Under the pieces are notes generated by a model. It was not told the DNA's origin. It saw only the letters and a program-made list of their open reading frames with translations, and did not search any database. DNA of 64,000 bases from Ardenticatenales bacterium (GTDB lineage: Bacteria; Chloroflexota; Anaerolineae; Promineifilales; Promineifilaceae), in assembly GCA_020634575.1 (NCBI GenBank), contig JACKBM010000022.1:1-64000 (forward strand), given 5' to 3'. The position numbers were made by a program, and so were the translations under genes. Below are positions 1,150-31,128 of this stretch, piece by piece. Position 1 is the first letter of the stretch. The number at the start of each line of letters is the position of its first letter.

Positions 1150-1177
1150 TGGTTCACTTATGGAACCACTATACCAC
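1150..1177 (-). promoter_or_regulatory. 28-bp operator/promoter motif, copy A
   Basis: Read on the coding (minus) strand the three blocks are GTGGTATA, TGGTTCCATAA and TGAACCA with one base between blocks. The same layout recurs at 21238-21265, 31011-31038 and 31101-31128, always oriented toward the downstream gene. Here it lies 18 nt upstream of the start at 1131, so the leader is very short. TGGT...ACCA half-sites are typical of FadR-type GntR operators, and TGGTACTAT resembles an extended -10. This is the most diverged copy in the middle block. Confidence 0.72.
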
Positions 1178-1269
1178 GTGCTATAATCGCCCGCAAACCA
1201 GCCGGGCGAGGGGTTGGCCAACCCGACGGGTTAATTTGTCATAATCATTTGGAAAAGGAAGGGATGTAG

Positions 1270-2358
1270 ATGAGCCTCATTGGTCAGAGCAAACAGGCAT
1301 TGGATACGCCGGCCCTCTGGGTCGACCTGGATCGACTGGACAGCAACATCGCCGAACTGGCGGCCTACTTTAAGGCCGCCGGGGTGGGCTGGCGGCCCCA
1401 CATGAAAGGGGTCAAGATCCCGGCCATTGCCCACAAAGCGGTTAATGCCGGCGCCCTGGGCGTGACGGTGGCCAAACTCAGCGAGGCTGAGGTAATGGCC
1501 AACAATGGCATTGGCGATATCCTGATTGCCAACCAGGTCGTCGGGCCGTTGAAAACCGGCCGGTTGATGCAGCTGCGCCGCCAGGCTGATGTCAAAGTAG
1601 CCGTCGATGACCCGGCCAATGTCGCCGAACTGGGCGCCGCCGCCCGCAGCGCCGGTGTCGAATTGGGTATCCTGGTCGATATCAACACCGGTATGAACCG
1701 GACCGGTGTTGCCTCCATAGAAGCCGCCGTGGCCCTCAGCCAGCAAGTGGCCGATACGCCCGGCCTCCGCTATCAGGGGCTGATGGCCTGGGAAGGCCAT
1801 GCCGTCGGTATGCAGGATGCCGAAGCCAAGGAAGCCTCGATTCGCCAATCTGTCTCCATGCTCACCGACGCGGCTGACGCCTGCCGGGCCACAGGCTTGC
1901 CCGTGGAGATCGTCAGCGGCGGCGGCAGCGGCACTTACAAATTCACCGCCCAGATACCTGGCATGACGGAAATTCAGGCGGGCGGCGCCATCTTCAACGA
2001 TGCCGCCTATACCCGTTGGGGCGTCACCACCCAGCAAGCGTTGTTCGTCAAGGTGACCGTCACCAGCCGGCCCACACCGGAGCGCATTATCATCGATGCC
2101 GGCTTCAAGGCACTGCCCGGCTATCATGTTCAGCCCGAGCCGCTTGGCGTCGCCAACATCGCCCGCTACAGCACCTCGGCTGAACATGGTGTCATCACCC
2201 TCTCAGCCCCGAATGAGAGCTTGAAAGTGGGCGACAACCTGGATGTGGTTGTCGGTTACACCGATGCCACGCTTTTCCTGCATGATCAGCTGTACGGCAT
2301 CCGCGATGGGGTGATTGAACTGATCTGGCCCATCACCGCGCGGGGCAAGCTGACCTGA
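1270..2358 (+). CDS. DSD1-family PLP enzyme (D-threonine aldolase / D-serine dehydratase-like)
   Basis: 362 residues starting at ATG 1270 behind a purine-rich GGAAAAGGAAGGGA. The N-terminal alanine-racemase-type TIM barrel begins ALWVDLDRLDSNI and carries the PLP lysine in RPHMKGVK (K46). LVDINTGMNRTGV and SGGGSGTYKF are the usual phosphate-gripping loops, and the C-terminal AEHG and LHDQLYG segments are where this family binds its divalent metal. Family members cleave D-3-hydroxy-amino acids to glycine plus aldehyde, or dehydrate D-serine. It is transcribed away from the CBM9-like/MlrC unit and convergently with the AKR gene, whose stop abuts it. Exact substrate unknown. Confidence 0.88.
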   Translation: MSLIGQSKQALDTPALWVDLDRLDSNIAELAAYFKAAGVGWRPHMKGVKIPAIAHKAVNAGALGVTVAKLSEAEVMANNGIGDILIANQVVGPLKTGRLMQLRRQADVKVAVDDPANVAELGAAARSAGVELGILVDINTGMNRTGVASIEAAVALSQQVADTPGLRYQGLMAWEGHAVGMQDAEAKEASIRQSVSMLTDAADACRATGLPVEIVSGGGSGTYKFTAQIPGMTEIQAGGAIFNDAAYTRWGVTTQQALFVKVTVTSRPTPERIIIDAGFKALPGYHVQPEPLGVANIARYSTSAEHGVITLSAPNESLKVGDNLDVVVGYTDATLFLHDQLYGIRDGVIELIWPITARGKLT

Positions 2359-3327
2359 TCACGGCAGCTCCCAAACCCCGGGATTGAGCAAAGGGCTGTC
2401 CCAGCGAAACGCCGCCAGCCGGTCCATCACTTCAGGCGGCAAAGCCGGCTGGCTGGCGGCGGCCAGGGCGACAGCCAGTTCCGCTTCATTGCGCACGCCG
2501 ATGAGGGCGGTGCTCAGCAGCGGATGTGACAGCACAAAGCGCAGCGCCAGCTCCGCCAGCCGGACTGGCGGCTGCAGGCCGGCCCCATAGGCGGCGACCG
2601 CCCGGGCCTGTGCCTTGAGCGGCGCCAGGTGCACGGGCAAATCTTCAGCTCGCGGTGTCAGGGCGCCCTTGAGATAAACTGAGCGAATCACCATGCCGAC
2701 CCCCTGAGCAGCGGCCAGGGGTAACACCTCATCGACCAACGTCTGATCGAGGATGTTAAATGCTACCTGCAAAACTTCTGCGCCCTGGGCGATGGCCTGC
2801 TGCGGCGCTTCTGTGCCGTAGGTGGAGGCGCCCACCAGCCGGGTCAGGCCGCGGCTTTTGAACTGTTTCAGGATCTCCATGGCCTCGCCATCGGCAAAAA
2901 CCTCTACCGGGGCGCTGTGCAGCATCAACACGTCGACGTGATCTGTCCCCAGCAGCCCCAGACTGGTGGTCAGGGATTGCTCTACCTGTTGGCGCAATGC
3001 CTCGCCCCGCAGCACCGTACCATCCGGCCCAAAGCAGCTGGCTTTGGTGGTCAGCACGACCTCGGCGCGTTTCCCTTTGAGAGCGTGGCCCAGCACCTGT
3101 TCGGCGTCACCATAGCCGCGGGCGGTGTCGATATGGTTGATGCCGCCGGCGATGGCCTGGTGAACCAGCCGGGTTGCTTCGGCCAGGGTGGGCGGGCGCA
3201 TCCCACCGGTACCGCCCTGCGCCTGCTCGTCTTTGGGCGTGATGCCGTAAGCCATCCCCAGGGCGACTGTGCCCAGAGAGAGGCTTGATACTTCAATGTC
3301 GCTGTGACCTAATCGTCGCATGTCCAT
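2359..3327 (-). CDS. Aldo/keto reductase
   Basis: 322 residues. I start at ATG 3327 (MDMRRLGHS); a TTG start at 3360 would overlap the preceding gene. The catalytic tetrad is complete: D67 and Y72 in HIDTARGYG, K95 in LTTKASC, H137 in VLMLHSA. These enzymes reduce aldehydes or ketones with NADPH; sequence resemblance is to the bacterial L-fucose/galactose dehydrogenase-like branch. It is the last gene of the long minus-strand run that begins with the GntR regulator near 21.2 kb, and its stop directly abuts the convergent DSD1-type gene. Confidence 0.88.
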   Translation of the reverse strand: MDMRRLGHSDIEVSSLSLGTVALGMAYGITPKDEQAQGGTGGMRPPTLAEATRLVHQAIAGGINHIDTARGYGDAEQVLGHALKGKRAEVVLTTKASCFGPDGTVLRGEALRQQVEQSLTTSLGLLGTDHVDVLMLHSAPVEVFADGEAMEILKQFKSRGLTRLVGASTYGTEAPQQAIAQGAEVLQVAFNILDQTLVDEVLPLAAAQGVGMVIRSVYLKGALTPRAEDLPVHLAPLKAQARAVAAYGAGLQPPVRLAELALRFVLSHPLLSTALIGVRNEAELAVALAAASQPALPPEVMDRLAAFRWDSPLLNPGVWELP

Positions 3328-3356
3328 TATCGTTTCTCGTTGTACCGGCCGGTCAC

Positions 3357-4268
3357 TCAAGCCCAGCCCTTGTCTGCTGCCGCCAGGAAATCAGCCGCAT
3401 CCAACCCCTGCCACAATTTGGCCAGCTCCGCCTCGCTTAGCGGCCGCATCGGCGCCCGTGGCGCTCCGCAGGGGAAGCCCATACGGGTCAAGATCGCCTT
3501 AACCGCTGCGATGCTGGGGACCGCCGTGAAGGCACGGATGATCCGGTTGGCCTGGTACTGTTTTGCCTGCGCGCCGGCCAGATCGCCCGCCTGATAACAC
3601 TCAAAGAGCTGGCTGAACAGACCTGGCAAAATATTGTACGTGGTGCCGATGGCGCCGTGGGCCCCCATCGTCAGGGCCGGCAGGCACATCTCGTCCGGGC
3701 CGGAAAGGACGGTGATGCCCCGTTCTTCACCCAGTTCGATGATGCTGCGCATGGTAAAGAAATCGTAGGAGGTGAATTTGATGCCGGCCACCTGCGGGAT
3801 CTGCATCAGCTCGCGGAACATATCGACTGTCACGGTTACGCCGGTGGCGCCTGGAATGTTATAGAGCCAGAGCGGTGTATCGGGTGCGGCCGCAGCAATC
3901 TGTTGATAATGGGCCATGAGCGCCGGTTGGTCGACGCGGAAATAAATCGGCGGTATGGCGGCGATGGCTGTCGCGCCGGCGCTCTGGGCATGGGCGGCCA
4001 GGTCAGCCGCCACATGGGTGGCCACGGCGCCCACATGAGCCACCACCGGCACGCCGGTCCCCGCTTCGTCCAGCACCGTTTCCAGGCTGAGCTTGCGCTC
4101 GTCCGGATCCAGCAGCAGCCCTTCGCCGGTGCCGCCGCAGACAAAGAAGCCGGCCAGGCCACACTCCAGCTGCCAGCGCACCAGTGAGCGCATCACGCGG
4201 GTGTCCAATTGTCCCTGCTCAGTAAACGGCGTCACCAACGCCGACAAAATCCCAGTAATCCGTTCCAT
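3357..4268 (-). CDS. DapA/NanA-family lyase (paralogue 1)
   Basis: 303 residues with ATG 4268 set by AAGGAGG at ideal spacing. Class I aldolase of the dihydrodipicolinate synthase / N-acetylneuraminate lyase superfamily: GTGEG at 46-50 (carboxylate-binding loop), Tyr136 in LYNIPGATG and the Schiff-base Lys164 in GIKFTSYD. The YNIPGATG loop resembles NanA more than true DapA. Members catalyse retro-aldol cleavage releasing pyruvate, or dehydration of 2-keto-3-deoxy acids. Its location beside a reductase and a flavoprotein in a catabolic operon argues against lysine biosynthesis. Two further DapA-family members lie at 18020 and 33633. Confidence 0.88.
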   Translation of the reverse strand: MERITGILSALVTPFTEQGQLDTRVMRSLVRWQLECGLAGFFVCGGTGEGLLLDPDERKLSLETVLDEAGTGVPVVAHVGAVATHVAADLAAHAQSAGATAIAAIPPIYFRVDQPALMAHYQQIAAAAPDTPLWLYNIPGATGVTVTVDMFRELMQIPQVAGIKFTSYDFFTMRSIIELGEERGITVLSGPDEMCLPALTMGAHGAIGTTYNILPGLFSQLFECYQAGDLAGAQAKQYQANRIIRAFTAVPSIAAVKAILTRMGFPCGAPRAPMRPLSEAELAKLWQGLDAADFLAAADKGWA

Positions 4269-4291
4269 CAAATCCTCCTTGGGGAGCGTTG

Positions 4292-4402
4292 GCCACGGAT
4301 TAACACAGATTTGTCACGGATTCTTTTCATATGGCTGGTAAATCAGGCAAATGTCTGTAGAAAAAGAAAGAAATCCGTGTTTAATCCGTGTCAATCCGTG
4401 GC
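4292..4402. repeat. Family A hairpin repeat (copy 1)
   Basis: A 111-bp inverted repeat. The left arm begins GCCACGGATTAACACAGATT and the right arm ends AATCCGTGTCAATCCGTGGC. The centre is unrelated AT-richer sequence. Related copies lie at 5657, 51379, 51945 and 60387. It separates the flavoprotein gene from the DapA-like gene within an otherwise tight operon and could act as an mRNA-processing or attenuation hairpin. Confidence 0.85.
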
Positions 4403-4413
4403 AAAAAAACCTC

Positions 4414-5616
4414 TTAATGCCGCCGTTGGATGGCGTCTTTTTGGGCCAGGGTTTGGGCCAGGTAGGCGGCGGTTTCGGCCTGGCCATAGCGGGCCGGGGC
4501 GAAGCTGGCGATGTTGATACCTGGCGTTTTGCCGGCGGCTAATTCCGCCAGCAATAAGCCGGCCACCGGGTTGTACGCAAAGCCGCCCGAGTGAAAGGCA
4601 CAACCAACCAACAGATTCTCCAGCCCGGGCACCGGCCCCAGGATCGGTTCGCCATCCAATGAGAAAGAAAGCAGTCCAACTTCTTCACTTTCCCAAACCG
4701 TGCCGGCCAGCGCCGGCAGGATGGGCTGGATGTCGGCGCGCAGCTGGTCTGGGAGACCGGCCGGTGCCGCCAACCCCGCCATACGAAACGCCAGTTCCGG
4801 CGCCGGAAACTCAATCCGCTCAGCCGTCTCGCCGCCCACCAGCAGCCGGCCGCCAGTCGCTGGCCGGAAATAGCCGCCATACGGATTGGCATTGACAGCC
4901 GGCAAATCAGGCGGCAGGGCCAGCGGCCGCGTCACATAGCGCTGGTGGACAAAGCTCTTGATCGGCAACTGGTACCCCAGGTTGGCCAGCAAACGAAGCG
5001 TCCAGACATGGACGGTGCTGATCACCTGGTCGACTGCGATAGCGCCCGCGGCGGTCTGCACGGCCGTCACCCGGCCCCCTGATGTTAAAAGCCCCTGAAC
5101 CAGCGTCCCTTCCCGGATCTCAACGCCCAGCTCGGCGCAACGACGCGCCAGGGCAGGCAGGTAAGCGGCCGGCTCGCTGTAGCCGCCCAGCGGGTCAAAC
5201 AGCCCGACAATATCTGGCGGCAGTTGCAGCGCCGGCCAACGTTGCATCATCGTGGCGGCGTTCATGAGTTCATAGGCGACCCCGAGCTGATCATACAGGG
5301 CCAGCAGCGGTTCTCGTTCCTGCCACGACGGGGCGTCGAAGAGATTCAGACAGCCGACGGCGTTAAATTGGTAGCCGTATGGCCCCAACTCGGCGCTCAG
5401 CTCCCGGTACAGGCGGAGGGCAATCTGGCGGGCGGCCACGCCGGCCTCGGTCCAGAGCAGGCCCGTGATAATACCGCCGGCCCGGCTGCTGGCGCCATCG
5501 CCCACCCGCTCTTTCTCCAGCAGGATGACCTGGCCTACCCCCTGCCGCGCCAGCTGATAGGCTGTACTCAGCCCAATCACCCCACCACCAATCACCACCA
5601 CTGTCTGGTTGCTCAT
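4414..5616 (-). CDS. FAD-dependent oxidoreductase, DAO/glycine-sarcosine oxidase family
   Basis: 400 residues. The Rossmann motif GGGVIG (10-15) sits in VVVIGGGVIGLSTAY, followed by the acidic end of strand 2 (LLEKERVG) and SSRAGG, which contacts FAD. The C-terminal substrate-cap and FAD-return motif is FSLDGEPILGPVPG...GCAFHSGGFAYNP. This matches DAO-type amine/imino-acid oxidases and dehydrogenases (glycine oxidase, sarcosine oxidase, D-amino acid dehydrogenase). In this cluster it may oxidise an amino-sugar acid or D-amino acid product. Family A repeats flank it on both sides, which is unusual for an internal operon gene. Confidence 0.87.
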   Translation of the reverse strand: MSNQTVVVIGGGVIGLSTAYQLARQGVGQVILLEKERVGDGASSRAGGIITGLLWTEAGVAARQIALRLYRELSAELGPYGYQFNAVGCLNLFDAPSWQEREPLLALYDQLGVAYELMNAATMMQRWPALQLPPDIVGLFDPLGGYSEPAAYLPALARRCAELGVEIREGTLVQGLLTSGGRVTAVQTAAGAIAVDQVISTVHVWTLRLLANLGYQLPIKSFVHQRYVTRPLALPPDLPAVNANPYGGYFRPATGGRLLVGGETAERIEFPAPELAFRMAGLAAPAGLPDQLRADIQPILPALAGTVWESEEVGLLSFSLDGEPILGPVPGLENLLVGCAFHSGGFAYNPVAGLLLAELAAGKTPGINIASFAPARYGQAETAAYLAQTLAQKDAIQRRH

Positions 5617-5652
5617 TTCCGGCTGACTCCAGGCGCAGCTGAGGTTGCAGAG

Positions 5653-5741
5653 TTTTGGCCACGGATTAACACGGATTCGGCACGGATTCTTCTTTTTCTA
5701 AAGAAATCCGGGGAAATCTGTGTTAATCCGTGGCCAAAAAA
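5653..5741. repeat. Family A hairpin repeat (copy 2)
   Basis: The left arm TTTTGGCCACGGATTAACAC and right arm GTGTTAATCCGTGGCCAAAA are exact complements over 20 bp; an imperfect inner pairing (GGATTC.../...GAAATCC) follows. This is the shortest and most symmetrical copy of the family. It lies between the flavoprotein start and the upstream dehydrogenase stop. Confidence 0.88.
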
Positions 5742-5761
5742 TGAATGCATCGTTGTGCCTC

Positions 5762-6784
5762 CTAGCTGTTGCCGGCCAGCTCGGCCGCCGTTAGCTCATT
5801 GAGCAGGGGCTGGCCGGCGCTGAGGCGGTCGATGTTCTGGTTGAAAATGGACCAGATGCGGCTGACAAAATCCCGATTCTTCGACGAGCCGGAGATATGG
5901 GGTGTCATGATCACATTGGGATAGCGCCAGAGCGGATGGTCCGGCGGCATTGGGTAATAAAAATGGGTGTCCAGGGCCGCGCCGGCAATCTGGCCGTTGT
6001 CCAGGGCGGCCAGCAGCGCATCTTCCTGGACAATGGGGCCGCGGGCCGGATTGAGCAGAAAGGCGTGCGGCGGTAGAGCAGCCAACTGTGCCGGCCCGAT
6101 CAGGCCGCGCGTCGAAGGCGAGAGGGGCATGGCCAGGATCAGGAAATCCAGTTCGGCCAGGAACTCGCGCCATTGCTCCGGCCGGTACACCTTATCCGGC
6201 AACAGACCGGCCGGATCGCCCGTACCCGCCACCACAAAGACGTTGTCACGCGGCCCCACACCGCTCCGGCTGAGCACATGGACCCGCATCCCCAGCGCCC
6301 TGGCCAACCGGGCCGTCTCCCGGCCGATGCCGCCGTAACCCCAGAGGCCAACCGTCGCGCCATAAATGCCCTGCTGATAACGGGCGGCCGGATCCCAGAC
6401 GCCCGCCTCCTGGTTGCGGATCAGGCCGCGTAGATCGCGGGCCAGGTTGATCATCATGGCGATATTCCACTCGCCAATCGGCACGTCAAAGACGCCGCGG
6501 GCATTGGAGACGTGCACACCCCGCTCGGATAGCCCCAACCCAACAATTTGGGTAAAGCCAACGGAGCCGATTTGCCAGAAGGCCAGGCTTTTCATCTCGG
6601 CCAGATTCTGGGGCGGGTGGGTGGAAAGCATAAGCTGGATATCGCCGGCCACAGCGGCCGGCGCCGACCAATCTTTTTCCTCCATGTCCGCTTCCAGGAT
6701 GGTGAACCGGCCGGTCACGTTCTTCTGCAACTGCGCCAGAGCGGCCGGGTCGATGGCGCCGTGGATGAGGATCTGGCTGTTCAA
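5762..6784 (-). CDS. D-2-hydroxyacid dehydrogenase-family protein (paralogue 1), Glu replaced by Tyr
   Basis: 340 residues. NAD-binding GYGGIG at 149-154, catalytic Arg248 in NPARGP and His296 in TPHISG are present. The usual acid/base-relay Glu of the DVFxxEP motif is Tyr277 (LDTHFYYP). The paralogue at 23534 has the same Tyr, so the change is systematic rather than decay. The start ATG overlaps the stop of the upstream enolase-superfamily gene by 4 nt, implying coupled translation. It may act on the 2-keto acid made by the upstream dehydratase homologue. Whether it is catalytically typical is uncertain. Confidence 0.87.
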   Translation of the reverse strand: MNSQILIHGAIDPAALAQLQKNVTGRFTILEADMEEKDWSAPAAVAGDIQLMLSTHPPQNLAEMKSLAFWQIGSVGFTQIVGLGLSERGVHVSNARGVFDVPIGEWNIAMMINLARDLRGLIRNQEAGVWDPAARYQQGIYGATVGLWGYGGIGRETARLARALGMRVHVLSRSGVGPRDNVFVVAGTGDPAGLLPDKVYRPEQWREFLAELDFLILAMPLSPSTRGLIGPAQLAALPPHAFLLNPARGPIVQEDALLAALDNGQIAGAALDTHFYYPMPPDHPLWRYPNVIMTPHISGSSKNRDFVSRIWSIFNQNIDRLSAGQPLLNELTAAELAGNS

Positions 6785-7989
6785 TCGACCAACACCTTGC
6801 CCGGCACGCTGTTAAATTCACCGCTGCCCGGCACAAAGGGGAAACGCGCCTTTGTCGCCTCACTTAACGTGATGCCCAGCCCCACACAGTCGGGCGGCAA
6901 CACCTGGCCGTCCACCATACGGAAGCTGTCGCCGATGATTTCCCGGTGCAAGGGGCCATAAGCGGGCGCGATCTCCAGCACCGTCGTGTTCTCGGCGGCG
7001 AAGCCACAATGGAGATTTTGCATAAAGCCGCCGCCGGCCGCCCAGGAATGGGTGGCGATCTGCCGCCCCTTGCCGGCCAGCAGCGCCGCCACCCGCATAA
7101 ATTCGCCCAGGCCGCCCGTGAAGGCCGCATCGGGCTGGCCGATGTCGAAGCTGTCCTGCTCGGCAAAAACCCGCCACTCGTACATCGTCGTCAAACATTC
7201 GCCGCCGGCGATGGGGATGGGCGTGGCGCGCCGCAGCTCGGCATAGCCCCAGGGGTCAGTGTAATGGAGAGGCTCTTCAAAAAAGAGCAGATCGTAGGGT
7301 TCGATGGCGCGGCAGACGGTCAACGCCGTGGGCAAATCCCAGGTCTGGCCCGGGTTGTTGCCCATATGGCCATCCAGGGCGATCTTCAGGCCGGGGCCGC
7401 TGTGGGCGCGTAGGGCCGCCAGCTTGGCCGCTTCAAAATCGGCGATCTGCTGGGGGGAACCGGCCGTTCCCTCTGCCCGCGGATAGGCGCCAGTGGCAAT
7501 CTTCACAGCCCGGAATCCCAGCGACTGGTAAAAATCCACCTTTGCCTTGAGCCGCTCGATGGGGTAATTGCTTGGCCCCCCGGTGGCGTAACAGGGCAGC
7601 TGTTCATGTTTCAGCCCCCCCAGCAATTCGTAAACCGGTAGCCCCAGCGCCTTGCCTTTCAGGTCCCACAGTGCGGCCTCGATGCCGCTCAGGACAATCG
7701 GCCCCAAACCAACGCGGCCCCAGAAATTGCCGCAATGGTACATGCGCGCCCATAACTGGTGGATGTTGTCGATGGTCTGGCCTATCAGGATCGGCTTATA
7801 AAAATCGACCACCTCAGGCACCATTTCCGGGCAGAAATAGCCGGCGTAGGTTTCGCCAAGACCCATCAGTTCCGTATCGGTGTGGATCTCAATGAAGGCG
7901 GCGCTGCGCCGGCGGCGGGCCTCGCTCAGAAAGGGGTCGTCGGTACAGGGGCCGGTGAGCAGAACGGTGCGCACATCGGTGATTTTCAT
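6781..7989 (-). CDS. Mandelate racemase / muconate lactonizing (enolase superfamily) protein 1
   Basis: 402 residues. Metal ligands are D206 (ALDGHMG), E238 (FFEEPL) and E264 (AGGECL). The candidate bases are K163 (AVKIATG) on one face and H314 (ATHSWAAGG) with D287 (GQPDAAF) on the other, the arrangement of MR-subgroup acid-sugar dehydratases. Typical chemistry is abstraction of a proton alpha to a carboxylate and loss of water to give a 2-keto-3-deoxy acid. It overlaps the dehydrogenase by ATGA and follows the ABC ATPase by 11 nt. Substrate unknown; a second member lies at 25670. Confidence 0.9.
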   Translation of the reverse strand: MKITDVRTVLLTGPCTDDPFLSEARRRRSAAFIEIHTDTELMGLGETYAGYFCPEMVPEVVDFYKPILIGQTIDNIHQLWARMYHCGNFWGRVGLGPIVLSGIEAALWDLKGKALGLPVYELLGGLKHEQLPCYATGGPSNYPIERLKAKVDFYQSLGFRAVKIATGAYPRAEGTAGSPQQIADFEAAKLAALRAHSGPGLKIALDGHMGNNPGQTWDLPTALTVCRAIEPYDLLFFEEPLHYTDPWGYAELRRATPIPIAGGECLTTMYEWRVFAEQDSFDIGQPDAAFTGGLGEFMRVAALLAGKGRQIATHSWAAGGGFMQNLHCGFAAENTTVLEIAPAYGPLHREIIGDSFRMVDGQVLPPDCVGLGITLSEATKARFPFVPGSGEFNSVPGKVLVD

Positions 7990-8000
7990 CGGCTCAGCTC

Positions 8001-10049: not shown

Positions 10050-10055
10050 AATGCT

Positions 10056-10964: not shown

Positions 10965-11051
10965 CGATGACTTCCAGTTGTTTCAGTGGCCGCCTTTAGC
11001 CAGACTGGCGCCAGCTTTTGCTGAGCGCCACGATCTCTTTGCGGCTACCCA

Positions 11052-12014: not shown

Positions 12015-12030
12015 AGAGAGATCCTGAAGG

Positions 12031-12060
12031 CAGGCCTGGCCCAGAGCTGGGCCAGGCCTG
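12031..12060. terminator. Perfect 13-bp hairpin between binding protein and permease
   Basis: CAGGCCTGGCCCA, a 4-nt loop GAGC, then the exact complement TGGGCCAGGCCTG, with no T-run on the minus strand. It lies in the 63-nt gap after the binding-protein stop. In SBP-dependent transporter operons such hairpins typically protect the 3' end of the SBP mRNA and lower downstream permease expression. Processing or attenuation is more likely than full termination. Confidence 0.8.
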
Positions 12061-12077
12061 CACGTAGACTTAGAGAA

Positions 12078-14062: not shown

Positions 14063-14085
14063 CTTCACCTCCAGATATTGTTGAA

Positions 14086-19302: not shown

Positions 19303-19363
19303 AGCGATCTATTTCAATTGGCGGTGCCGGCGATTAGCCAGCACCTATACGCTTGGTGACGGC

Positions 19364-21237: not shown

Positions 21238-21265
21238 TGGTTTACTTATAGTACCAGTGTACCAC
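21238..21265 (-). promoter_or_regulatory. 28-bp operator/promoter motif, copy B (GntR autoregulation)
   Basis: On the minus strand: GTGGTACA, TGGTACTATAA, TAAACCA with single-base separators. It lies 77 nt upstream of the GTG of the GntR gene and would control the long minus-strand unit that follows. The middle block is identical to the copy at 31101-31128. Confidence 0.75.
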
Positions 21266-21300
21266 CGAGGATCGGCTGATGCAAGTGGCTAACGGCCCTT

Positions 21301-23433: not shown

Positions 23434-23449
23434 AGATAGTCCGTCGTAG

Positions 23450-23533
23450 AGACGCGCTGCGGCGCGTCTTCTGATATGTCGGGCGCCGTCGAGACGCGCC
23501 CCCTCGCCTTGCTCGGGGCAAGCTAGCGCGTCT
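23450..23533. repeat. Paired hairpins with AGACGCGC arms
   Basis: The first hairpin is AGACGCGC-TGCG-GCGCGTCT (23450-23469). A second begins AGACGCGC at 23492 and closes with GCGCGTCT at 23533, with an inner CCCC...GGGG pairing. Between a dehydrogenase stop and the NHL start they are likely interspersed palindromic repeats and may act as processing or termination structures. Confidence 0.75.
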
Positions 23534-24499: not shown

Positions 24500-25629
24500 G
24501 GCTGCACCCGGCACAGGGCGTAACGGATGTGGGTGATCGACATCTCCGTACACCAGAAGCTGAACAGGATGTCGCCGTTGGGCAGCAAGGTGGCAGTGGG
24601 GGCGCCATAGGCGATGGTATCGTGGGAGCGCGGGTAGGCTTCAGGCGCATCGACGCCCAGCCGTTCCCGGCCGGTTGCGTCCCAGAGCTGAATCTGATTC
24701 GCCAGATCCCAGGTCAGCCCCCAATCCTCAGAGAGACAGGCACGAAAACCGGGCTGATTGGCCTCGCGGGTGGTGTAGACCGCTGCCAGCCGGCCGCCGC
24801 CCAGATCGACGACGTTATTGGTCTGGCCCGGAATGTTGGTTGCTTCCGGCTCTGTCCAACGGGCGCCATCTGGTGAGCCGAAGCAGCGGTGCAGGGGCAG
24901 GGGCGCCATCCCGTTGGCCATATCGGCGCTCCAGAATAGGGCAAACAGGCGCTGGTCGGTCAACGACGTTACCCGACCATGCCAGAACCCTTTGCCGCTG
25001 GCGGCGCCGTCGGCAAACCAGACCGGGTCAGACCAGCTTTGACCCCGGTCGGCAGAGTAAAAGCCGAGTGTCCGCGGCTGATAGGGACCGGGGTCGTCGA
25101 ACGCATGCCATTGGTCGTAGGGCAGGAACCAGCGACCGTCAGCCAGCTCGATGATGCTGGTGCTGGGCGTGATGACAAGATCGGCCGGTATGTCGATAAC
25201 CTCGGGCTCCCCCCAGCTGGCGCCGTTGTTGTGGGAGCGCTGCAGGATAACTTCCAGCGCCGTCAGGCCGCCCGTTTTTTCGTTAAAGATGGGCCACTCC
25301 GGATCGCTTCGGTCCACCCGGAAGGCAACAATGACCAGCTCGCCATCCCGCATACGCGTCAGAAAGGGGCTGTGATAGGAGTAGGGCCGGTCATCCTGCG
25401 TCCGGTCGGTGATCAGCTCATGTTCTCCCCAGCTCAGGCCGCCATCATGGGAGCGGCATTGCCAGAAGGTGAGGTCGGTGGCGTACATGCCCTGGCCCCG
25501 GTTGTAGGTGCAGAGCAGCTCTGTGCCACCCAGGGAGACCAGGTGACTGAACAGGGCGGTGACATGGACGTAGCCGGGATTGGGGTTGCGATAAATTGGC
25601 CCGCTGCTGACAAGTTCCAGAGTAGCCAT
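24496..25629 (-). CDS. Asp-box (BNR/sialidase-like) beta-propeller protein
   Basis: 377 residues from ATG 25629, preceded by GGAGGGAAT. Five Asp-box turns are visible: SHDGGLSW, SHNNGASW, SADRGQSW, SPDGARW and SEDWGLTW, spaced as in a six-bladed sialidase propeller. No secretion signal is seen, so it is probably intracellular. The family includes exo-sialidases and related glycoside-processing proteins as well as non-catalytic relatives. I could not identify the full Arg triad. The neighbouring DapA/NanA-like lyases make an acidic-sugar substrate attractive but unproven. Confidence 0.84.
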   Translation of the reverse strand: MATLELVSSGPIYRNPNPGYVHVTALFSHLVSLGGTELLCTYNRGQGMYATDLTFWQCRSHDGGLSWGEHELITDRTQDDRPYSYHSPFLTRMRDGELVIVAFRVDRSDPEWPIFNEKTGGLTALEVILQRSHNNGASWGEPEVIDIPADLVITPSTSIIELADGRWFLPYDQWHAFDDPGPYQPRTLGFYSADRGQSWSDPVWFADGAASGKGFWHGRVTSLTDQRLFALFWSADMANGMAPLPLHRCFGSPDGARWTEPEATNIPGQTNNVVDLGGGRLAAVYTTREANQPGFRACLSEDWGLTWDLANQIQLWDATGRERLGVDAPEAYPRSHDTIAYGAPTATLLPNGDILFSFWCTEMSITHIRYALCRVQP

Positions 25630-25669
25630 ATTCCCTCCAGGATGAAGCCGCGGAGAGCGGCTTGGATAG

Positions 25670-26872
25670 CTAAAAATATTCCTCGCCGGGCGCCAGGTGC
25701 TGCCGGCAAATTGCTTCATTCAGGGTCAGGCCAAGACCGGGCGCGTCAGACAGGACGACATGACCGTCTGCAAAAAGGGGCAGCCCCTCCCGATCCGCCA
25801 CCTGCCCGATCCAGGGAGCATCATGGAAATGGTATTCCAGCCCGGTGAAGTTGGGGCTGGCGGCGGCCACATGGGCGCAGGCGATAATGCCCAGGGCGCA
25901 GCTGTTGTTGTGCATCGCCATGGGCAGGTAATGCATCTCGGCATATTCGGCGATCTTGCGTGTTTCGTGTAGCCCGCCGGAAAACAAGATGTCGGGATGG
26001 ATAATGTCGCAGGCGCCCCGATCGATGAATAGCCGGAATTGCTCGGCCACAAAGACCTCGCCCAGGGCGATGGGAATCGGGCTTTTCTCGCGGATGGCGA
26101 CACAGGCATCGGGGTTGGTTACCGGCGTCGGGTCTTCGAGCCATTTGAGATTGAGCGGCGCCAGCGCCTGGGCCAGGCGAATGGCCGAGGGGACGTCGTA
26201 TTGCATATGGCCGTCGACCGAAATCTCCATGTCGGGTCCGACAGCGTCGCGCACGGCGCTCAGTCGCTCGACAATCCGGTTGATCTGGGGCAGGGTGAGG
26301 GTCCGGTTCCAGCCATCGTTGGGCTGATCGGTGGCGGCGTAGTCGATATCAAATTTGATGTCGGTGAAACCACGGTCGCGGGCTTCCTGGGCCAGGGCGC
26401 GCCAGGCGCCGAGGTCGGCCAGATCGGCCGGGGCGCTGCGGTCGAGGTAGACGAGCAGCCGGTCGCGATACTTGCCACCCAGCAAATTGTAGACCGGCGT
26501 GCCCAATGCCTTGCCGGCCAGGTCAAGCAGAGCCATCTCCACACCGCTCACCGCCCAGGCGACTGGCCCAAATGGGGTGGCGCTGGCAGATTGGCTGGGC
26601 TGGTGGGGCGGTTGCCCCCCATAAAGCATGTCGGTGATGAAGGGGCGGATAGCAAACGGGTCCTTACCCAGCAGGTATGTGCGCATCTTGCCATTGATGA
26701 GTTGGCGCACGCCGAGCGTCTGTTGTTGGAAATGGGCGGCCTCGCCCAGGCCGTAGAGACCGGCGTCGGTGTCGATGCGGACCAGCAAAATATGCCAGTC
26801 CCGCCCCTGGCCGCCGATACCGTGGGCGTCCGGCCCGACCAGGGCCATGGTGCGGACATCAGTGATTTTCAT
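25670..26872 (-). CDS. Mandelate racemase / enolase superfamily protein 2
   Basis: 400 residues, start ATG 26872 (MKITDVRTMALVGPDA) inside the end of the TIGR04076 gene (14-nt overlap, so translationally coupled). K173 in DIKFDIDY; metal ligands D220 (SVDGHMQ), E246 (WLEDPTP) and E272 (ALGEVF). A candidate His lies in AMHNNSCALG. It differs from the member at 6781 in its C-terminal motifs and probably uses another acid sugar or carboxylate. Expected reaction: dehydration or epimerisation next to a carboxylate. Confidence 0.88.
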   Translation of the reverse strand: MKITDVRTMALVGPDAHGIGGQGRDWHILLVRIDTDAGLYGLGEAAHFQQQTLGVRQLINGKMRTYLLGKDPFAIRPFITDMLYGGQPPHQPSQSASATPFGPVAWAVSGVEMALLDLAGKALGTPVYNLLGGKYRDRLLVYLDRSAPADLADLGAWRALAQEARDRGFTDIKFDIDYAATDQPNDGWNRTLTLPQINRIVERLSAVRDAVGPDMEISVDGHMQYDVPSAIRLAQALAPLNLKWLEDPTPVTNPDACVAIREKSPIPIALGEVFVAEQFRLFIDRGACDIIHPDILFSGGLHETRKIAEYAEMHYLPMAMHNNSCALGIIACAHVAAASPNFTGLEYHFHDAPWIGQVADREGLPLFADGHVVLSDAPGLGLTLNEAICRQHLAPGEEYF

Positions 26873-27188
26873 CATCAGCCTCAAGGCGTTCCAGGAGGAA
26901 GAAGACCGGCCGGAACCCATCTGTACAGTTGGTCACGAAAGTACCCGGTTTTGTGCCCAGCATGTTGCCGCCCCGGGCCAGCACCATCACATATTTTTGG
27001 ATATCAGCCCAGGCCCAATCACTAAACCCATCCGGGATGTGGCCGTCGGAGATGAAGCTGTGGCCGACCGGGTAGCTGTGGCAGCAACCTTCCGGTTTCC
27101 AGGTCACGCCTTCGGTGTAGGCGTCGACAAACTCCTGGTTAAAGGTCTTTTTCAGGATAGTGATACGCACTTTGTAAGGCACCAGCAT
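26859..27188 (-). CDS. TIGR04076-family protein
   Basis: 109 residues matching the small TIGR04076 family across its length: VRITILKKTFNQEFVDAY, KPEGCCHSYPVGHSF, GFSDWAWADIQKYVMVLARGG and the signature VTNCTDGFRPVFFLLERLE. Function is unknown; three Cys (two in the GCCHS segment, one in NCTDG) suggest metal binding. A clear AGAGGA Shine-Dalgarno precedes ATG 27188. It is translationally coupled to the enolase-superfamily gene. Confidence 0.88.
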   Translation of the reverse strand: MLVPYKVRITILKKTFNQEFVDAYTEGVTWKPEGCCHSYPVGHSFISDGHIPDGFSDWAWADIQKYVMVLARGGNMLGTKPGTFVTNCTDGFRPVFFLLERLEADDENH

Positions 27189-27273
27189 GAGGTTGTCCTC
27201 TGGTAAGGTCGGTTTTTCGCTTATTGTCAGACCGGCCGGTTGTGACCGACCTGCTCTGGCCGCGGCCGGCCGG

Positions 27274-28110
27274 TCAATCCCAGCGGCTGGGGTTCAGGCC
27301 GGTTGCCTGGTCCGCCATGTCGGCCGGCTTATTGGCCACGTTGAAATCCGCCCGACGGATATTGCGGTCGATGAAATAGGGGCGGACATTGGCCGGCAGA
27401 GTCGCTAACTGTTCTTCAGCCCATGGCTTGACTTCCGGGACGATGGGGCCGGCCCAGGCCGGCCGGTAAGCGATGGCCAGCATGCGGCGGGCATAGGTGC
27501 CCACGTTGGGGAAGTTGCCATGGAACACTTTGTGGTTCAGGAGGAGGGCGGAACCGGCCGGTGCCGGCACCATCACCTCTTCCGGGTGGCCTGTGTACCG
27601 CTTGTACGGGTTGGCGTCGGCATGGAGCGACAGATGGGAGCGGGGCACCACCCGAAACGGCGATACCTCTGGTGTGAGCTCATCCAGATAATACAGCACC
27701 CGGATGATGATGGGGCAGCTGCCTTCGTAGCCGAAGATCTGGGAGCCGTACGGTTGGCCGTCGGTGTGGAGGCTGATGCCGGGGTGACCTGGTTCGGAGA
27801 TGGCATAGGCGTAGGTCATGAAGACGAGGTCATCGCCAAGCAGTTCAGCCAGGAAGTCGGTGACCGGCCGGTGATCAATCAACTGCGTGATCGCCCCGCC
27901 ATGCCATTGCATCTGGCTACGCGTCCGCTGATGGACGCTGTAATCCATGGGTGTGGTTTCCAGCCCGGCGGTGATCTCCCGCAACTCAGCCAGCAGCGGC
28001 GGCGGCAGGACATCCGGTAGAATGAGATACCCTTCCAGCTCCAGATTACGGATCTGCTCGCCCCGGCTTAACTGACGCCAATCCCGATTATCCACGCGTA
28101 CGTCCGTCAT
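27274..28110 (-). CDS. Phytanoyl-CoA dioxygenase (PhyH)-family Fe(II)/2-oxoglutarate oxygenase
   Basis: 278 residues, ATG after GGAGGCGACAAG. The facial triad is visible: HTD in SLHTDGQPYG and the distal His in LLNHKVFHGNFPN, with Arg in ARRMLAIAYRP likely binding 2-oxoglutarate. The N-terminal EGYLILPDVLPPPLLAEL is the usual PhyH opening. It would hydroxylate a small metabolite using O2 and 2-oxoglutarate. Its place between amidohydrolase and TIGR04076 genes suggests it initiates or modifies breakdown of the cluster's substrate. Confidence 0.9.
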   Translation of the reverse strand: MTDVRVDNRDWRQLSRGEQIRNLELEGYLILPDVLPPPLLAELREITAGLETTPMDYSVHQRTRSQMQWHGGAITQLIDHRPVTDFLAELLGDDLVFMTYAYAISEPGHPGISLHTDGQPYGSQIFGYEGSCPIIIRVLYYLDELTPEVSPFRVVPRSHLSLHADANPYKRYTGHPEEVMVPAPAGSALLLNHKVFHGNFPNVGTYARRMLAIAYRPAWAGPIVPEVKPWAEEQLATLPANVRPYFIDRNIRRADFNVANKPADMADQATGLNPSRWD

Positions 28111-28122
28111 CTTGTCGCCTCC

Positions 28123-29127
28123 TCAGGCCGGCAGCGGGTAAAGCTGCCGGGCATTGTGGTAGAAGATATCTTCAATCTGGTTGTCTGTTAATTTCAACCG
28201 CTGGAAAGCCAGAATCAGGCTGCGTAATGATTCCAGGCCAACCAGGACGGGGGCCAGCTTGATATGCTTCTCTTCTTTATCCATATCATTGGCATAAAAC
28301 CAGTGGAACGAATCGCCGATGGCCACACAGCGGCCGTGGATGTGGCTGACATGGAAATCAGTGCCATAAAACAGCCGCTCATGCCCCATCGTCTCGATGA
28401 TCGCCTCAAAGGCGCCGGCTTCAGTGACGGCTGAGGTGTCAAACCAGACATTGTTGAGCCCTTTAAGTGAGTGGATGCCTTCGATGGTGTGCCAGGGGTT
28501 AAAGCCGCGGGCGGCATGGGCCAGGATCAGGTTCATTTTAGGATAGGTTTCGCAATAGCGCCGGATCGTGGCCTGATTGAGCGGGTCCGCCAGGGCGCGA
28601 TCCCGCACCATGTGGAGGGTGATGGAGAGCCCAAACTGATTGGCAACTTCCATATGGGCTTCGGGCAGATACGCTTCGATGGGCGCCGCCCAGGTGGGGC
28701 CGTCGACCTGGGCCATGGTGTGATAACATTTCAGGCCAACAAAACCATGGCGCTGGACCTCGCCGGCAATGTAATCTGGCTCCATATCCGGGGCGATGAT
28801 CATCTGGCCAAAAGCGTTTTTGCCCAGCGGGCCATTCACTTCAGCAGCGATGTAATCATTATTGGCTTCCCGGTCGCCCATAAAAGCCAGCCCAAAAAAG
28901 AGCCCGCCCTGGGTGCGCCCGCCCGGATGGATCCATTCACTGTATTCGTAAAATTCAGCCAGCCCCTGGGGGTTCGGGGTATCGCCGAAGCCGCCAATCG
29001 CCCCAGGCGAAAAATGGTCGTGTCGAAAGAGGTGAGCGTGGGCATCAAAGATGCGGTCGGGTAGATGGGGTTCAACCTCGCGGCTGAGAAATGCTTTGTC
29101 TTCGTCGGTAAATTGCCAGCTAACCAT
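28123..29127 (-). CDS. Amidohydrolase_2-family enzyme
   Basis: 334 residues, ATG behind AGGAGGAATCC. The metal motif is IFDAHAHLFRHDHF; later barrel motifs are GLKCYHTM, ITLHMVRD, LILAHAARG and LFYGTDFHVSH with the catalytic Asp. It is complete, and one of four amidohydrolase-fold genes here. The substrate is probably a carboxylate, lactone or amide released in the pathway. It lies 12 nt upstream of the PhyH gene. Confidence 0.88.
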   Translation of the reverse strand: MVSWQFTDEDKAFLSREVEPHLPDRIFDAHAHLFRHDHFSPGAIGGFGDTPNPQGLAEFYEYSEWIHPGGRTQGGLFFGLAFMGDREANNDYIAAEVNGPLGKNAFGQMIIAPDMEPDYIAGEVQRHGFVGLKCYHTMAQVDGPTWAAPIEAYLPEAHMEVANQFGLSITLHMVRDRALADPLNQATIRRYCETYPKMNLILAHAARGFNPWHTIEGIHSLKGLNNVWFDTSAVTEAGAFEAIIETMGHERLFYGTDFHVSHIHGRCVAIGDSFHWFYANDMDKEEKHIKLAPVLVGLESLRSLILAFQRLKLTDNQIEDIFYHNARQLYPLPA

Positions 29128-29154
29128 CGGATTCCTCCTGAACGAATGGACCGT

Positions 29155-29817
29155 TTACAAGCGTGATAGCGCCTCTTCTAGTGAAATAGTCCGGAAAGAT
29201 TGGGTAATCCCAGATTTTGTCAATGAGCCTTGCCGCCAGATTTGTTGAGCCGGCCCGGAATTGGGTAGATCGGGGGTAGCAAAAATAGATTCTGCCCAGG
29301 TGACCACATCCGGATTGGCAGAGCCGAAAGTCAAGTCAGCCCTTTCCACCTGACCTGCGCCACTATAAAGATAACAACGCTTGATTGTGCGCCGGGCGCT
29401 TTCCCGCAGCTCGGCCGCAAATTCGTTAGAGCACGGCGGTCGCTCTGGTACGAGCAACACGGTGATGCCGCGGTCAACGATGGCGGTTAACCGGGCTGCT
29501 GCGTCGTCAGGCACGAGAATTTCTTTGTGAGCGGGCCAGATATCCAGCATTTTATGATCGGCCAGCGGTTGGCGGCTCTGGAAACTGTAATAGTCCGGGT
29601 AAGCGTAGAAGGTTTCCTGGTGCTGACGGTAGCAATCATAGAAGGCAGTGACGTAGGCCAGGATCAGGGTAGCGGCACCAGCACCCTCCACGTTGGTCGG
29701 TGCGACCAGCCCCAATCTTTCCAGCGGACTGAAGCCGGCAAAATAGGCGGCATGAGAACGCGGCTGACCGCCCTGATACAGGGTGAAATCGTGACCACGT
29801 AGGATTGAACTATGCAT
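29155..29817 (-). CDS. Hypothetical protein in the catabolic cluster
   Basis: 220 residues, start ATG 29817 after AGGAGAGAAC. I recognise no family. It is soluble, lacks a signal peptide and has YPDYYSFQSRQPLADHKMLDIWPAHKEILV followed by a region (ITVLLVPERPP, RRTIKRCYLYSG) that could be a small alpha/beta domain. It lies between the MDR dehydrogenase (35 nt) and an amidohydrolase (27 nt). Function unknown. Confidence 0.75.
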   Translation of the reverse strand: MHSSILRGHDFTLYQGGQPRSHAAYFAGFSPLERLGLVAPTNVEGAGAATLILAYVTAFYDCYRQHQETFYAYPDYYSFQSRQPLADHKMLDIWPAHKEILVPDDAAARLTAIVDRGITVLLVPERPPCSNEFAAELRESARRTIKRCYLYSGAGQVERADLTFGSANPDVVTWAESIFATPDLPNSGPAQQIWRQGSLTKSGITQSFRTISLEEALSRL

Positions 29818-29852
29818 GTTCTCTCCTGCCAATTGCGTCAAGGCCGATCATT

Positions 29853-30884
29853 TCAGTCGCGCCAATCAAAGATGACGCCCAGCATCGATTTTTCGCGCTC
29901 ATAAGCCATCTCGTATGCCTGGCGCATCTCGCTGTAATGAAAGCGGTGGGTGATGAGCTGGCTCGGTTTGAGCCGGCCATCGGCCATGAGCGACAGGACA
30001 TGGGCGGCGGAGCGATCAGCGGCCCAGCGATTTTGCATGTCGAAGGCGGAGCTGCCGGAATTGGGGAAGAGATAACCGGCCGGTCCCGACACCGCAAACA
30101 GCGAAATCCCCTTGATGTAAAACAGCTCCATCGGCAGCGGATTAAAGTCCAGTGGCAGCTCGCCCCGCCCCAACAGGCTGACGATGGAAACCCGCCCATT
30201 TTCCCGTACGATATCCAGCGCCGTGCGGAAAGCCGGCCACGGGTTGGCCGTCAGGATGACAAGGTCAATACCCTGCCCGTCGGTGAACTCATTCAGCTTC
30301 GTTTTGAGATCGGGGTCGCTGGAGAGGAAACCGGCGTGAGCGCCCATCTGGGCCGCCATCTCCAACCGCAGTGGGCTGTTGGCAATGGCGACGACACGGG
30401 CGCCAAACAGCGGCCCCAGGGCGATGGCGCCCAACCCCAGCAGCCCCACACCCACGACAGCCACGTTTTCGCCCGGCTGGAACTGCGCTTTGCGGTAACA
30501 ATGGGCGCTCAAGGCGTAGAGATGGGCGTAGACCGCATCTTCCGGATCAACGCCGGGCGGTACCCGGACCATGCTGGCCGACTCTTTGGTGATGTACTCA
30601 GATTGATGGGGTTGCCGCGTCACGACGGTGTCGCCCACCTTGACCCGGGTGACGGCGCTGCCGATGCCCTGGACAATGCCCAGGTTGCTGTCGCCAACCC
30701 AGCGGGGGTAGGTCGGGGCGCCGGGCACATCCTCAGCGCCCTCGTAGTTGCCCCGGTCGGTGCCGATTTTGAAGGCGCTGATCTGCGTTTTGATCCAGAT
30801 TTCATCCGGGGCGAGCCGGCTGGCGTCCAGAGGCTGCTCTTCGATGGTGAGCTGGCGCGGGCCGTGCAGGATGGCAATTTTCAT
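29853..30884 (-). CDS. Medium-chain dehydrogenase/reductase without catalytic zinc ligands
   Basis: 343 residues; GGAGG five bases upstream fixes ATG 30884 (MKIAILHGPRQL), so a 440-residue frame reading back through the promoter region is rejected. GroES-like N-domain plus Rossmann VVGVGLLGLGAIAL. The usual catalytic Cys (here SAFKIGTDRG) and the GHE motif (here WVGDSNLG) are missing, as is the structural four-Cys lobe. It is therefore a zinc-free MDR, more quinone-reductase- or BchC-like in mechanism. It is the first gene of the unit controlled by the site at 31011-31038. Confidence 0.88.
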   Translation of the reverse strand: MKIAILHGPRQLTIEEQPLDASRLAPDEIWIKTQISAFKIGTDRGNYEGAEDVPGAPTYPRWVGDSNLGIVQGIGSAVTRVKVGDTVVTRQPHQSEYITKESASMVRVPPGVDPEDAVYAHLYALSAHCYRKAQFQPGENVAVVGVGLLGLGAIALGPLFGARVVAIANSPLRLEMAAQMGAHAGFLSSDPDLKTKLNEFTDGQGIDLVILTANPWPAFRTALDIVRENGRVSIVSLLGRGELPLDFNPLPMELFYIKGISLFAVSGPAGYLFPNSGSSAFDMQNRWAADRSAAHVLSLMADGRLKPSQLITHRFHYSEMRQAYEMAYEREKSMLGVIFDWRD

Positions 30885-31010
30885 CGTTCCTCCAGTTACA
30901 GGGGCAGGGCCGCCGGAGTGCCTGGTTATCGGGCAAGCGGCGCCGCCAGAAAATGGCCGTTGTGGGGAGCTGGCACCATGACAGGCTGAAGAGGGACCGC
31001 GATGCCTTAC

Positions 31011-31038
31011 TGGTTCAGCTATAGTACCAGTATGCCAC
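31011..31038 (-). promoter_or_regulatory. 28-bp operator/promoter motif, copy C
   Basis: On the minus strand: GTGGCATA, TGGTACTATAG, TGAACCA with one-base separators. It lies 126 nt upstream of the MDR start and 62 bp from copy D, which faces the opposite way. Together they define a divergent promoter region (30885-31166) between the minus-strand MDR-to-NHL unit and the plus-strand aminotransferase unit. Confidence 0.75.
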
Positions 31039-31100
31039 AGTGCGTGGCGAGCGTCAAAAACCGGTTCACCCACCAGTTGTGGTTGCCAGCGCAACCCCAT

Positions 31101-31128
31101 GTGGTATATTGGTACTATAACTGAACCA
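31101..31128 (+). promoter_or_regulatory. 28-bp operator/promoter motif, copy D
   Basis: On the plus strand: GTGGTATA, TGGTACTATAA, TGAACCA with one-base separators. It lies 38 nt before the aminotransferase ATG. This copy best represents the consensus. The TGGTACTAT core has the form of an extended -10 element, so repressor binding would cover the promoter. Confidence 0.77.

What the first reader, a model, noticed from the sequence alone, without database searches (positions are those of the whole stretch)
1150..31128. Four copies of one 28-bp operator/promoter define a GntR regulon of about 30 catabolic genes
Sites at 1150-1177, 21238-21265, 31011-31038 and 31101-31128 share three blocks, consensus GTGGTATA / TGGTACTATAA / TGAACCA, each separated by one base. 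All four are oriented toward the gene they precede: CBM9-like/MlrC, GntR regulator and the long importer unit, MDR-to-NHL unit, and aminotransferase-to-aldolase unit. I see no fifth copy in the rest of the window. Seen directly: the sites and their orientation. Known: FadR-type GntR proteins use TGGT/ACCA half-sites. Inference: the regulator at 20480 binds all four, and the DNA from 1 to 36 kb is one regulon.
Basis: partly seen in the sequence, partly recalled or inferred. Interest (0 to 1): 0.86.

Follow-up and report, generated by a model that had tools for sequence, protein, structure and literature searches.

The report
Local GntR regulon with composite operators
Four near-identical DNA switches in this bacterial gene cluster are very probably the docking sites of the cluster's own GntR regulator, laid over the start points of transcription so that one protein can shut off the local sugar-acid and amino-acid breakdown genes; related bacteria carry the same switches at the same genes.

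Summary
In detail: four 28-bp sites stand at the stated coordinates, with no fifth copy. The reading holds in the main. The sites recur at orthologous gene units in relatives whose cluster order has changed, with unconserved flanks; G001 and G002 each carry four, at the same kinds of place. In 17 relatives, picked for carrying regulator or motif, a relaxed whole-genome scan gave 28 matches in 12 genomes and none to the reversed pattern. In 396 genomes of the class, 5 of 6 motif genomes are among the 10 with the regulator; three of the five were preselected.

New here: the sites are fused to sigma-70-type promoters. The -10 is TATAnT in the first block, not the TATAA of the second; a -35 of at least 4 of 6 lies 16-18 bp upstream in 21 of 41 sites (mean 5.3 at other phases). 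The operator has three TGGT boxes, two tandem at 8 bp and one inverted, plus a degenerate fourth. Likeliest mechanism: an autoregulated FadR-type repressor blocking RNA polymerase.

Limits: nothing bench-tested; the window's genome is not held; operon continuity, effector and substrate are inferred; site orientation is not universal.

The parts
1150..1177 (-). site 1 (operator), GTGGTATAGTGGTTCCATAAGTGAACCA; between CBM9-like/MlrC (-) and the divergent gene at 1270 (+)
   Evidence: corresponding sites in G001 (29535) and G002 (13167)
1168..1173 (-). putative -10 TATAGT of site 1
1191..1196 (-). putative -35 TTGCGG (3 of 6) of site 1, spacer 17
487..1131 (-). CBM9-like gene, first gene after site 1 (start codon assigned by eye)
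   Evidence: PF16011
3..473 (-). MlrC / M81 metallopeptidase, N-terminal part, cut by the window edge
   Evidence: PF07364
1270..2358 (+). D-threonine aldolase / D-serine dehydratase-like gene, divergent from site 1; membership uncertain
   Evidence: beside a site in G001, G002 and G009
2359..20461 (-). 17 co-directional genes after gntR: aldo/keto reductases, NAL-like aldolase, FAD oxidoreductase, 2-hydroxyacid dehydrogenase, enolase-superfamily protein, peptide-type ABC importer, amidohydrolases, PIG-L, DHDPS-like, Rieske
   Evidence: operon continuity inferred
20480..21160 (-). GntR regulator, FadR subfamily (GntR + FCD), 226 aa, GTG start
21238..21265 (-). site 2 (operator), upstream of gntR
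   Evidence: also upstream of gntR orthologues of 44-79% identity in G001, G002, G007, G008, G009, G145, G152
21256..21261 (-). putative -10 TACACT of site 2
21279..21284 (-). putative -35 TTGCAT (3 of 6) of site 2, spacer 17
21301..30884 (-). MDR-to-NHL unit: Zn alcohol dehydrogenase, 29155 ORF, amidohydrolase, PhyH, enolase-superfamily, BNR, 2-hydroxyacid dehydrogenase, NHL
   Evidence: operon continuity inferred
31011..31038 (-). site 3 (operator) toward the MDR unit
   Evidence: corresponding sites in G001 (5886) and G002 (34883)
31029..31034 (-). putative -10 CATACT of site 3
31052..31057 (-). putative -35 TTGACG (5 of 6) of site 3, spacer 17
31083..31088 (+). putative -35 TTGCCA (5 of 6) of site 4, spacer 16
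31101..31128 (+). site 4 (operator) toward the aminotransferase unit
   Evidence: corresponding sites in G001 (5992) and G002 (43736)
31105..31110 (+). putative -10 TATATT of site 4
31167..36164 (+). aminotransferase III, M19 dipeptidase, DHDPS-like, SDR, HpcH/HpaI aldolase

Best explanation
The four sites are operators of the GntR/FCD protein encoded at 20480-21160. Each is superimposed on the core of a sigma-70-type promoter: the left box TGG-TATAnT is at once a TGGT half-site and a -10, with the -35 16-18 bp upstream. Bound GntR covers the -10 and the start point and shuts off its own gene and the neighbouring catabolic units; an oxidised, probably carboxylate-bearing metabolite of the pathway releases it. 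Shown by computation: the sites, their conservation at orthologous genes, their rarity in the genomes searched, co-occurrence with this regulator, and the phased promoter hexamers. Inferred: binding, repression rather than activation, the inducer, and the reach of each transcript.
For: Sites are far above background. Among 80 loci with relatives of the regulator, 8 of 10 with 45-79% identity hold a site of at least 20 bits and 0 of 70 with 37% or less do. G001 has four sites at the four corresponding places; G002 keeps one at each unit although the MDR and aminotransferase units are no longer divergent. Over eight window-to-relative pairs identity is 21-26 of 28 in the site and 6-17 of 30 in each flank. 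Whole-genome pattern: 18 matches in 8 of 10 genomes, 28 in 12 of 17 with a relaxed pattern, none to the reversed control in either; these genomes were picked for regulator or motif. In 396 genomes of the class 6 have the motif (1 the reversed control), 10 the regulator, 5 both (Fisher p 1.9e-8); without 4 preselected genomes, 2 of the 3 motif genomes are among the 6 regulator genomes of 392 (p 5.8e-4). A -35 of at least 4 of 6 at the right phase in 21 of 41 sites (other phases: mean 5.3, most 12) and of at least 5 of 6 in 12 of 41 (mean 0.85, most 4); after thinning to 34 sites with dissimilar upstream DNA, 16 and 10 (other phases: mean 4.5 and 0.7, most 10 and 3). R37, R47 and R51, invariant in alignment A1, appear to correspond to Arg59, Arg69 and Arg73 of NanR, proposed to contact bases (PMC8012715, passages; correspondence read by eye).
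Against: G003 has a 70%-identical regulator but only a degenerate site about 240 bp upstream (16.0 bits, 11.2). G084 has the motif with no regulator at 1e-40, beside a trypsin-like gene; this may be chance. G351 and G182, both with a regulator of 40% identity, carry only weak sites (24.1 and 19.9 bits), before DHDPS1. Site orientation disagrees with the only outward gene in 4 of 16 decidable cases. Two of the four window sites have -35 hexamers matching only 3 of 6, and 20 of 41 sites have no -35 of 4 of 6. No binding or expression data.
Confidence: 0.82

Rival explanations
1. The GntR protein binds these sites but acts as an activator, or as a dual regulator, of some units.
For: Some -35 hexamers are weak (3 of 6 at sites 1 and 2), as in activator-dependent promoters; sites before HpcH genes in G029, G010 and G004 are turned the other way.
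Against: The operator covers the -10 and start region, where binding normally blocks; several relatives pair it with a perfect TTGACA (G152, G145, G396, G007, G008, G009).
Confidence: 0.12
2. The motif is bound by a different regulator encoded in or near the cluster, and the GntR gene is only one of its targets.
For: These genomes hold several to many loose matches to the regulator (3-31 first-look candidates in the genomes listed), and other GntR-like genes occur near some clusters.
Against: The motif stands before orthologues of this gene where few other cluster genes are found in the 19 kb examined (G145, G396) and co-occurs with it over 396 genomes; the boxes are FadR-type TGGT.
Confidence: 0.05
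3. The motif is only a promoter (sigma-factor) sequence without an operator.
For: Phased -35 and -10 hexamers are there.
Against: The best conserved box is the inverted one downstream of the -10 (ACCA in 38 of 39 unique sites), which sigma-70 contacts do not explain; matches are rare in whole genomes.
Confidence: 0.02

Closest known systems
FadR-subfamily (GntR/FCD) regulons such as LldR, PdhR, DgoR, ExuR (PMC4494728; sections 10 and 17 and passages seen)
   Same: GntR + FCD protein; TGGT/ACCA boxes; control of genes for oxidised substrates; extra boxes 7-12 nt from the site centre are described for many members
   Different: The usual core there is TKGT-N3-ACMA with extra boxes at about half strength; here the core-right box matches ACMA in only 2 of 39 unique sites, and the right outer box is the strongest
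E. coli NanR and its (GGTATA)3 operator (PMC8012715; abstract and passages seen)
   Same: Relative by sequence (83 bits to the NCBIfam NanR model; 86 bits in the PDB profile search); TGGTATA-type boxes in tandem; the cluster's DHDPS1 is closest to N-acetylneuraminate lyases among solved structures
   Different: Two tandem boxes plus one inverted instead of three tandem; no 32-residue N-terminal extension; of 11 genomes with NanE over cut-off only G029 has it beside a site
Atu1419 (VanR), a tetrameric GntR/FCD repressor of Agrobacterium (PMC7797058; passages seen)
   Same: Acts on its own promoter region; palindromic operators that overlap the -10 box
   Different: 10-bp ATGTATACAT operator; VanR group of FCD proteins

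Membership tests
GntR family, FadR subfamily | N-terminal GntR winged helix plus C-terminal helical FCD domain | tested here: met
   PF00392 2.5e-17 and PF07729 3e-22; AlphaFold2 model, mean pLDDT 88.1, with a helical C-terminal half; the best Foldseek hits are GntR-type regulators, TM about 0.4-0.5
GntR family, FadR subfamily | usual operator TKGT-N3-ACMA | tested here: not met
   core-left TKGT 37 of 39, core-right ACMA 2 of 39, AYAA 24 of 39. NanR and BioR are accepted exceptions (PMC4494728, section 10), so this does not exclude membership of the protein
GntR family, FadR subfamily | binding to the operator as a dimer | not testable with these tools
   no binding data
LldR / PdhR / NanR as named models | score above the curated NCBIfam cut-off | tested here: not met
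   LldR 105.7 of 311, NanR 83.3 of 260, PdhR 67.2 of 330 bits
NanR | three tandem GGTATA repeats | tested here: not met
   two tandem boxes (8-bp step) and one inverted box
NanR | 32-residue N-terminal extension for cooperative binding | tested here: not met
   the Pfam GntR match begins at residue 15 and the first predicted helix at residue 7
NanR | sialic acid pathway genes under control | tested here: inconclusive
   NanE over cut-off in 11 of 17 genomes, beside a site only in G029, but assemblies are fragmented and NanK, NagA and NagB were not searched for

The most novel reading that the evidence does not exclude
The 27-bp element is a composite operator on which two or more GntR dimers assemble side by side at 8-bp steps (two tandem TGGT boxes and one inverted), cooperatively but without NanR's N-terminal extension, while the first box is at the same time the promoter's -10; the kind of right-hand box (TATACCA or TGAACCA) sets whether the promoter can fire one way or both ways.
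Probability: 0.3. Interest if true: 0.5.

Novelty: new variant of a known kind. Interest (0 to 1): 0.4.

Why it matters
It gives a testable operator, promoter and regulator for a catabolic regulon of Chloroflexota that my searches did not find described (6 of the 634 FadR-type regulators analysed in PMC4494728 are from Chloroflexi). It also helps to separate the regulon's core from accessory genes: among 16 relatives the NAL-like aldolase, class III aminotransferase, M19 dipeptidase, SDR, zinc dehydrogenase and HpcH aldolase recur most often, while the window's ABC importer operon as a whole is found only in G001 and G002. That narrows the search for the unknown substrate.

Tried and rejected
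TATAA of the second block as the -10: rejected. A -35 of at least 4 of 6 at the distance it would need occurs in 4 of 41 sites and of at least 5 of 6 in none, background level, against 21 and 12 for TATAnT; some sites also replace TATAA by TTCAA. A third reading, TACTAT, gives 6 and 3 of 41 and may be used at G152 (21683), G396 (8392) and G005 (5668).

Sialic-acid regulon (NanR-like boxes, NAL-like aldolase, BNR genes, NanE beside a site in G029): NanE was sought in 17 genomes; 11 have it over cut-off, and in the other ten it is not near a site that I examined (other contigs; for G009 another place, contig number of one site not known to me). Not supported, not excluded.

Strict orientation of sites toward the regulated gene: 12 agree, 4 disagree, 22 lie between two outward genes, 3 undecided by my crude gene calls.

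Plain FadR palindrome: two competing dyad centres (position 14, mean complement match 0.59; position 18, 0.66); not settled.

Internal promoters or terminators in the gntR unit: 2 promoter-like matches where 6.9 are expected, 20 terminator-like where 14.9 (sd 4.0) are expected, both strands; uninformative.

Literature: the listings of searches show no description of this regulon or operator in the held open-access library; I saw passages or sections of three papers only. Which 6 Chloroflexi regulators PMC4494728 analysed is, as its text indicates, in supplements, which I could not read.

The report check made me add, and lower the confidence from 0.83 to 0.82 for the 20 sites without a fair -35; the sialic-acid membership row was changed to inconclusive.
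Full report
Observation. They agree in 22-25 of 28 positions pairwise; a matrix built from any three finds the fourth at 36.0-44.9 bits; with the full matrix the next place that does not overlap a site scores 1.9 bits. There is no fifth copy in the 64 kb. Three sites point to one nearest gene start each. The site at 1150-1177 lies between two divergent genes, 18 bp from ATG 1131 of the CBM9-like gene (start assigned by eye) and 92 bp from the gene at 1270.

The regulator. Window 20480-21160 (-) encodes a 226-residue GntR/FCD protein. The nearest named models are LldR, NanR and PdhR, all far below their cut-offs. A search of predicted proteins gave 378 relatives (best 120 listed), the nearest 96% identical. 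Arg59, Arg69 and Arg73 of NanR, proposed to contact bases (PMC8012715, passages), appear to correspond to R37, R47 and R51, invariant in my 38-sequence alignment; I read that correspondence by eye. D147, H151, H196 and H218 are invariant too, which is the pattern I recall for the FCD metal site; that assignment is from memory.

Conservation in relatives. Of the ten with 45-79% identity, eight carry a site of at least 20 bits; L003 has a degenerate one (16.0) and L006 none, its contig beginning inside the DHDPS1 gene. Of the 70 with 37% identity or less, none exceeds 16.5 bits. Those 70 include a few Chloroflexota, so the contrast is by protein similarity, not by phylum.

I then took longer stretches and re-scanned 24 stretches including the window with a matrix retrained on its own hits; because the motif is nearly palindromic, hits of both orientations entered the training (81 hits in the last round). 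Keeping the best hit per place at 19 bits or more gave 41 sites, four of them in the window. The reversed sequences gave 4 hits at 11 bits or more in 461,757 bases. The 41 sites are not independent: several are orthologous, and the stretches were chosen for carrying the regulator or the motif.

G001 has four sites: the divergent pair between MDR and the aminotransferase, one between CBM9 and the 1270-type gene, and one before gntR. G002 has four as well, at MlrC, gntR, MDR and the aminotransferase, although there the MDR and aminotransferase units are no longer head to head. Between the window and these two genomes the eight site pairs agree in 21-26 of 28 positions and the 30-bp flanks in 6-17 of 30. 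Sites that move with their genes while the flanks drift are what a regulon predicts.

Genome-wide specificity. The strict pattern gave 18 matches in 8 of 10 whole genomes, none to the reversed pattern. A relaxed pattern gave 28 matches in 12 of 17, again none reversed; one of these (G006 C769, second match) I did not inspect further. These genomes had been picked for regulator or motif. In 396 genomes of the class the strict pattern occurs in 6 and its reverse in 1; the regulator at E 1e-40 or better occurs in 10 (where at most 7 candidates per genome were scored, so a few may be missed); 5 have both. Fisher p is 1.9e-8, but four of these genomes had been picked by their regulator; without them 2 of the 3 motif genomes are among the 6 regulator genomes of 392, p 5.8e-4. 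The sixth motif genome, G084, has its site beside a trypsin-like gene and may be a chance match. Within the order, 3 of 56 genomes have the regulator (the same 56): the module is patchily distributed.

Promoter. A scan for sigma-70 hexamers around the 41 sites gave 23 forward pairs overlapping the site against 3.9 expected from shuffled flanks, and 11 reverse pairs against 4.8. Eighteen of the 23 share one phase: the -10 is positions 4-9 of the site, TATAnT in the block GTGGTATAnT, and the -35 lies 16-18 bp upstream. At that phase 21 of 41 sites have at least 4 of 6 bases of TTGACA and 12 have at least 5; over other phases the means are 5.3 and 0.85 and the maxima 12 and 4. After removing sites with similar upstream DNA, 16 and 10 of 34 remain (other phases: mean 4.5 and 0.7). 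For TATAA as the -10 the numbers are 4 and 0 of 41, for TACTAT 6 and 3. The flanks were not used to find the sites. In the window the pairs are TTGCGG-17-TATAGT, TTGCAT-17-TACACT, TTGACG-17-CATACT and TTGCCA-16-TATATT. TGG-TATAnT also reads as an extended -10 (recalled). In the reverse direction, from the right-hand box, 7 of 41 reach 4 of 6; one of the two sites before gntR in G008 has a perfect TTGACA facing the other way.

Operator anatomy. In 39 unique sites: outer-left GGT in 30 (TKGT in 17), core-left TKGT in 37, core-right ACMA in 2 (AYAA in 24), outer-right ACCA in 38. Information: 8.7, 8.1, 6.2 and 10.6 bits. The sites were chosen by matrix, which inflates all four. The left box repeats at a step of 8 (mean self-match 0.63 against 0.08-0.48 at other steps from 3 to 13). 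Two dyad centres compete. So the element is not a plain TKGT-N3-ACMA site. Additional boxes near FadR-type sites are known at about half strength (PMC4494728, section 17); here the right outer box is the strongest of all.

Regulon content. Of 16 relatives examined (stretches of 3.6 to 55 kb, so absences are weak), the NAL-like aldolase is present at 45% identity or more in 12, M19 dipeptidase and SDR in 8, aminotransferase and DHDPS2 in 7, MDR, amidohydrolase D, AKR1 and the 1270-type gene in 6, HpcH in 5; OppB and the solute-binding protein of the importer only in G001 and G002. In the alignments the NAL-like aldolase has the YNIP tyrosine, the lysine and the GPDE motif of N-acetylneuraminate lyases, but GGTGE where they have GSTGE or GSSGE (roles of these residues recalled). 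The substrate remains unknown; two enolase-superfamily proteins, several DHDPS- or HpcH-type aldolases and hydroxyacid dehydrogenases point to oxidised sugars, while the dipeptidase, MlrC, aminotransferase and FAD oxidoreductase point to an amino or amide part. This is inference.

Mechanism. The simplest reading is repression: the protein covers the -10 and start region of its own and the neighbouring promoters and leaves when a pathway acid binds its FCD domain. Palindromes over the -10 box are known for the FCD repressor Atu1419 (PMC7797058, passages). Weak -35s at two window sites and reversed HpcH sites keep an activating or dual role open.

Verdict. A real, well-conserved local regulon of a known kind with a distinct operator variant. 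Not surprising as a principle; useful because operator, promoter and regulator are now concrete enough to test.

Noticed in passing
L122 (G029 C131) 6602-7189: A NanE-like epimerase gene stands divergently beside a site; in the ten other genomes with NanE over cut-off it is not near a site that I examined.
   Followed up: yes
L135 (G084 C90) 10165: A motif match in front of a trypsin-like gene in a genome without the regulator at 1e-40; perhaps chance.
   Followed up: partly
L126/L127 (G010 C18) and L128 (G004 C7): A second GntR of about 60% identity to the window's lies 2-4 kb from the first; possibly a duplication with shared targets.
   Followed up: no
L123 4951, L127 884, L128 13901 (before HpcH genes): Sites in front of HpcH aldolase genes are turned the opposite way in all three genomes where I saw one.
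   Followed up: partly
window 37050-43448: 2132-residue ORF with RHS repeats and an SpvB-like domain next to the cluster.
   Followed up: no
window 48218-49168 and 50470-51378: Bro-N domain protein, and an Indigoidine-synthase-A-like protein, outside the regulon.
   Followed up: no
window 15639-17145: Two adjacent amidohydrolase ORFs overlap by 161 bases as listed; a start near 16388 removes most of the overlap.
   Followed up: partly
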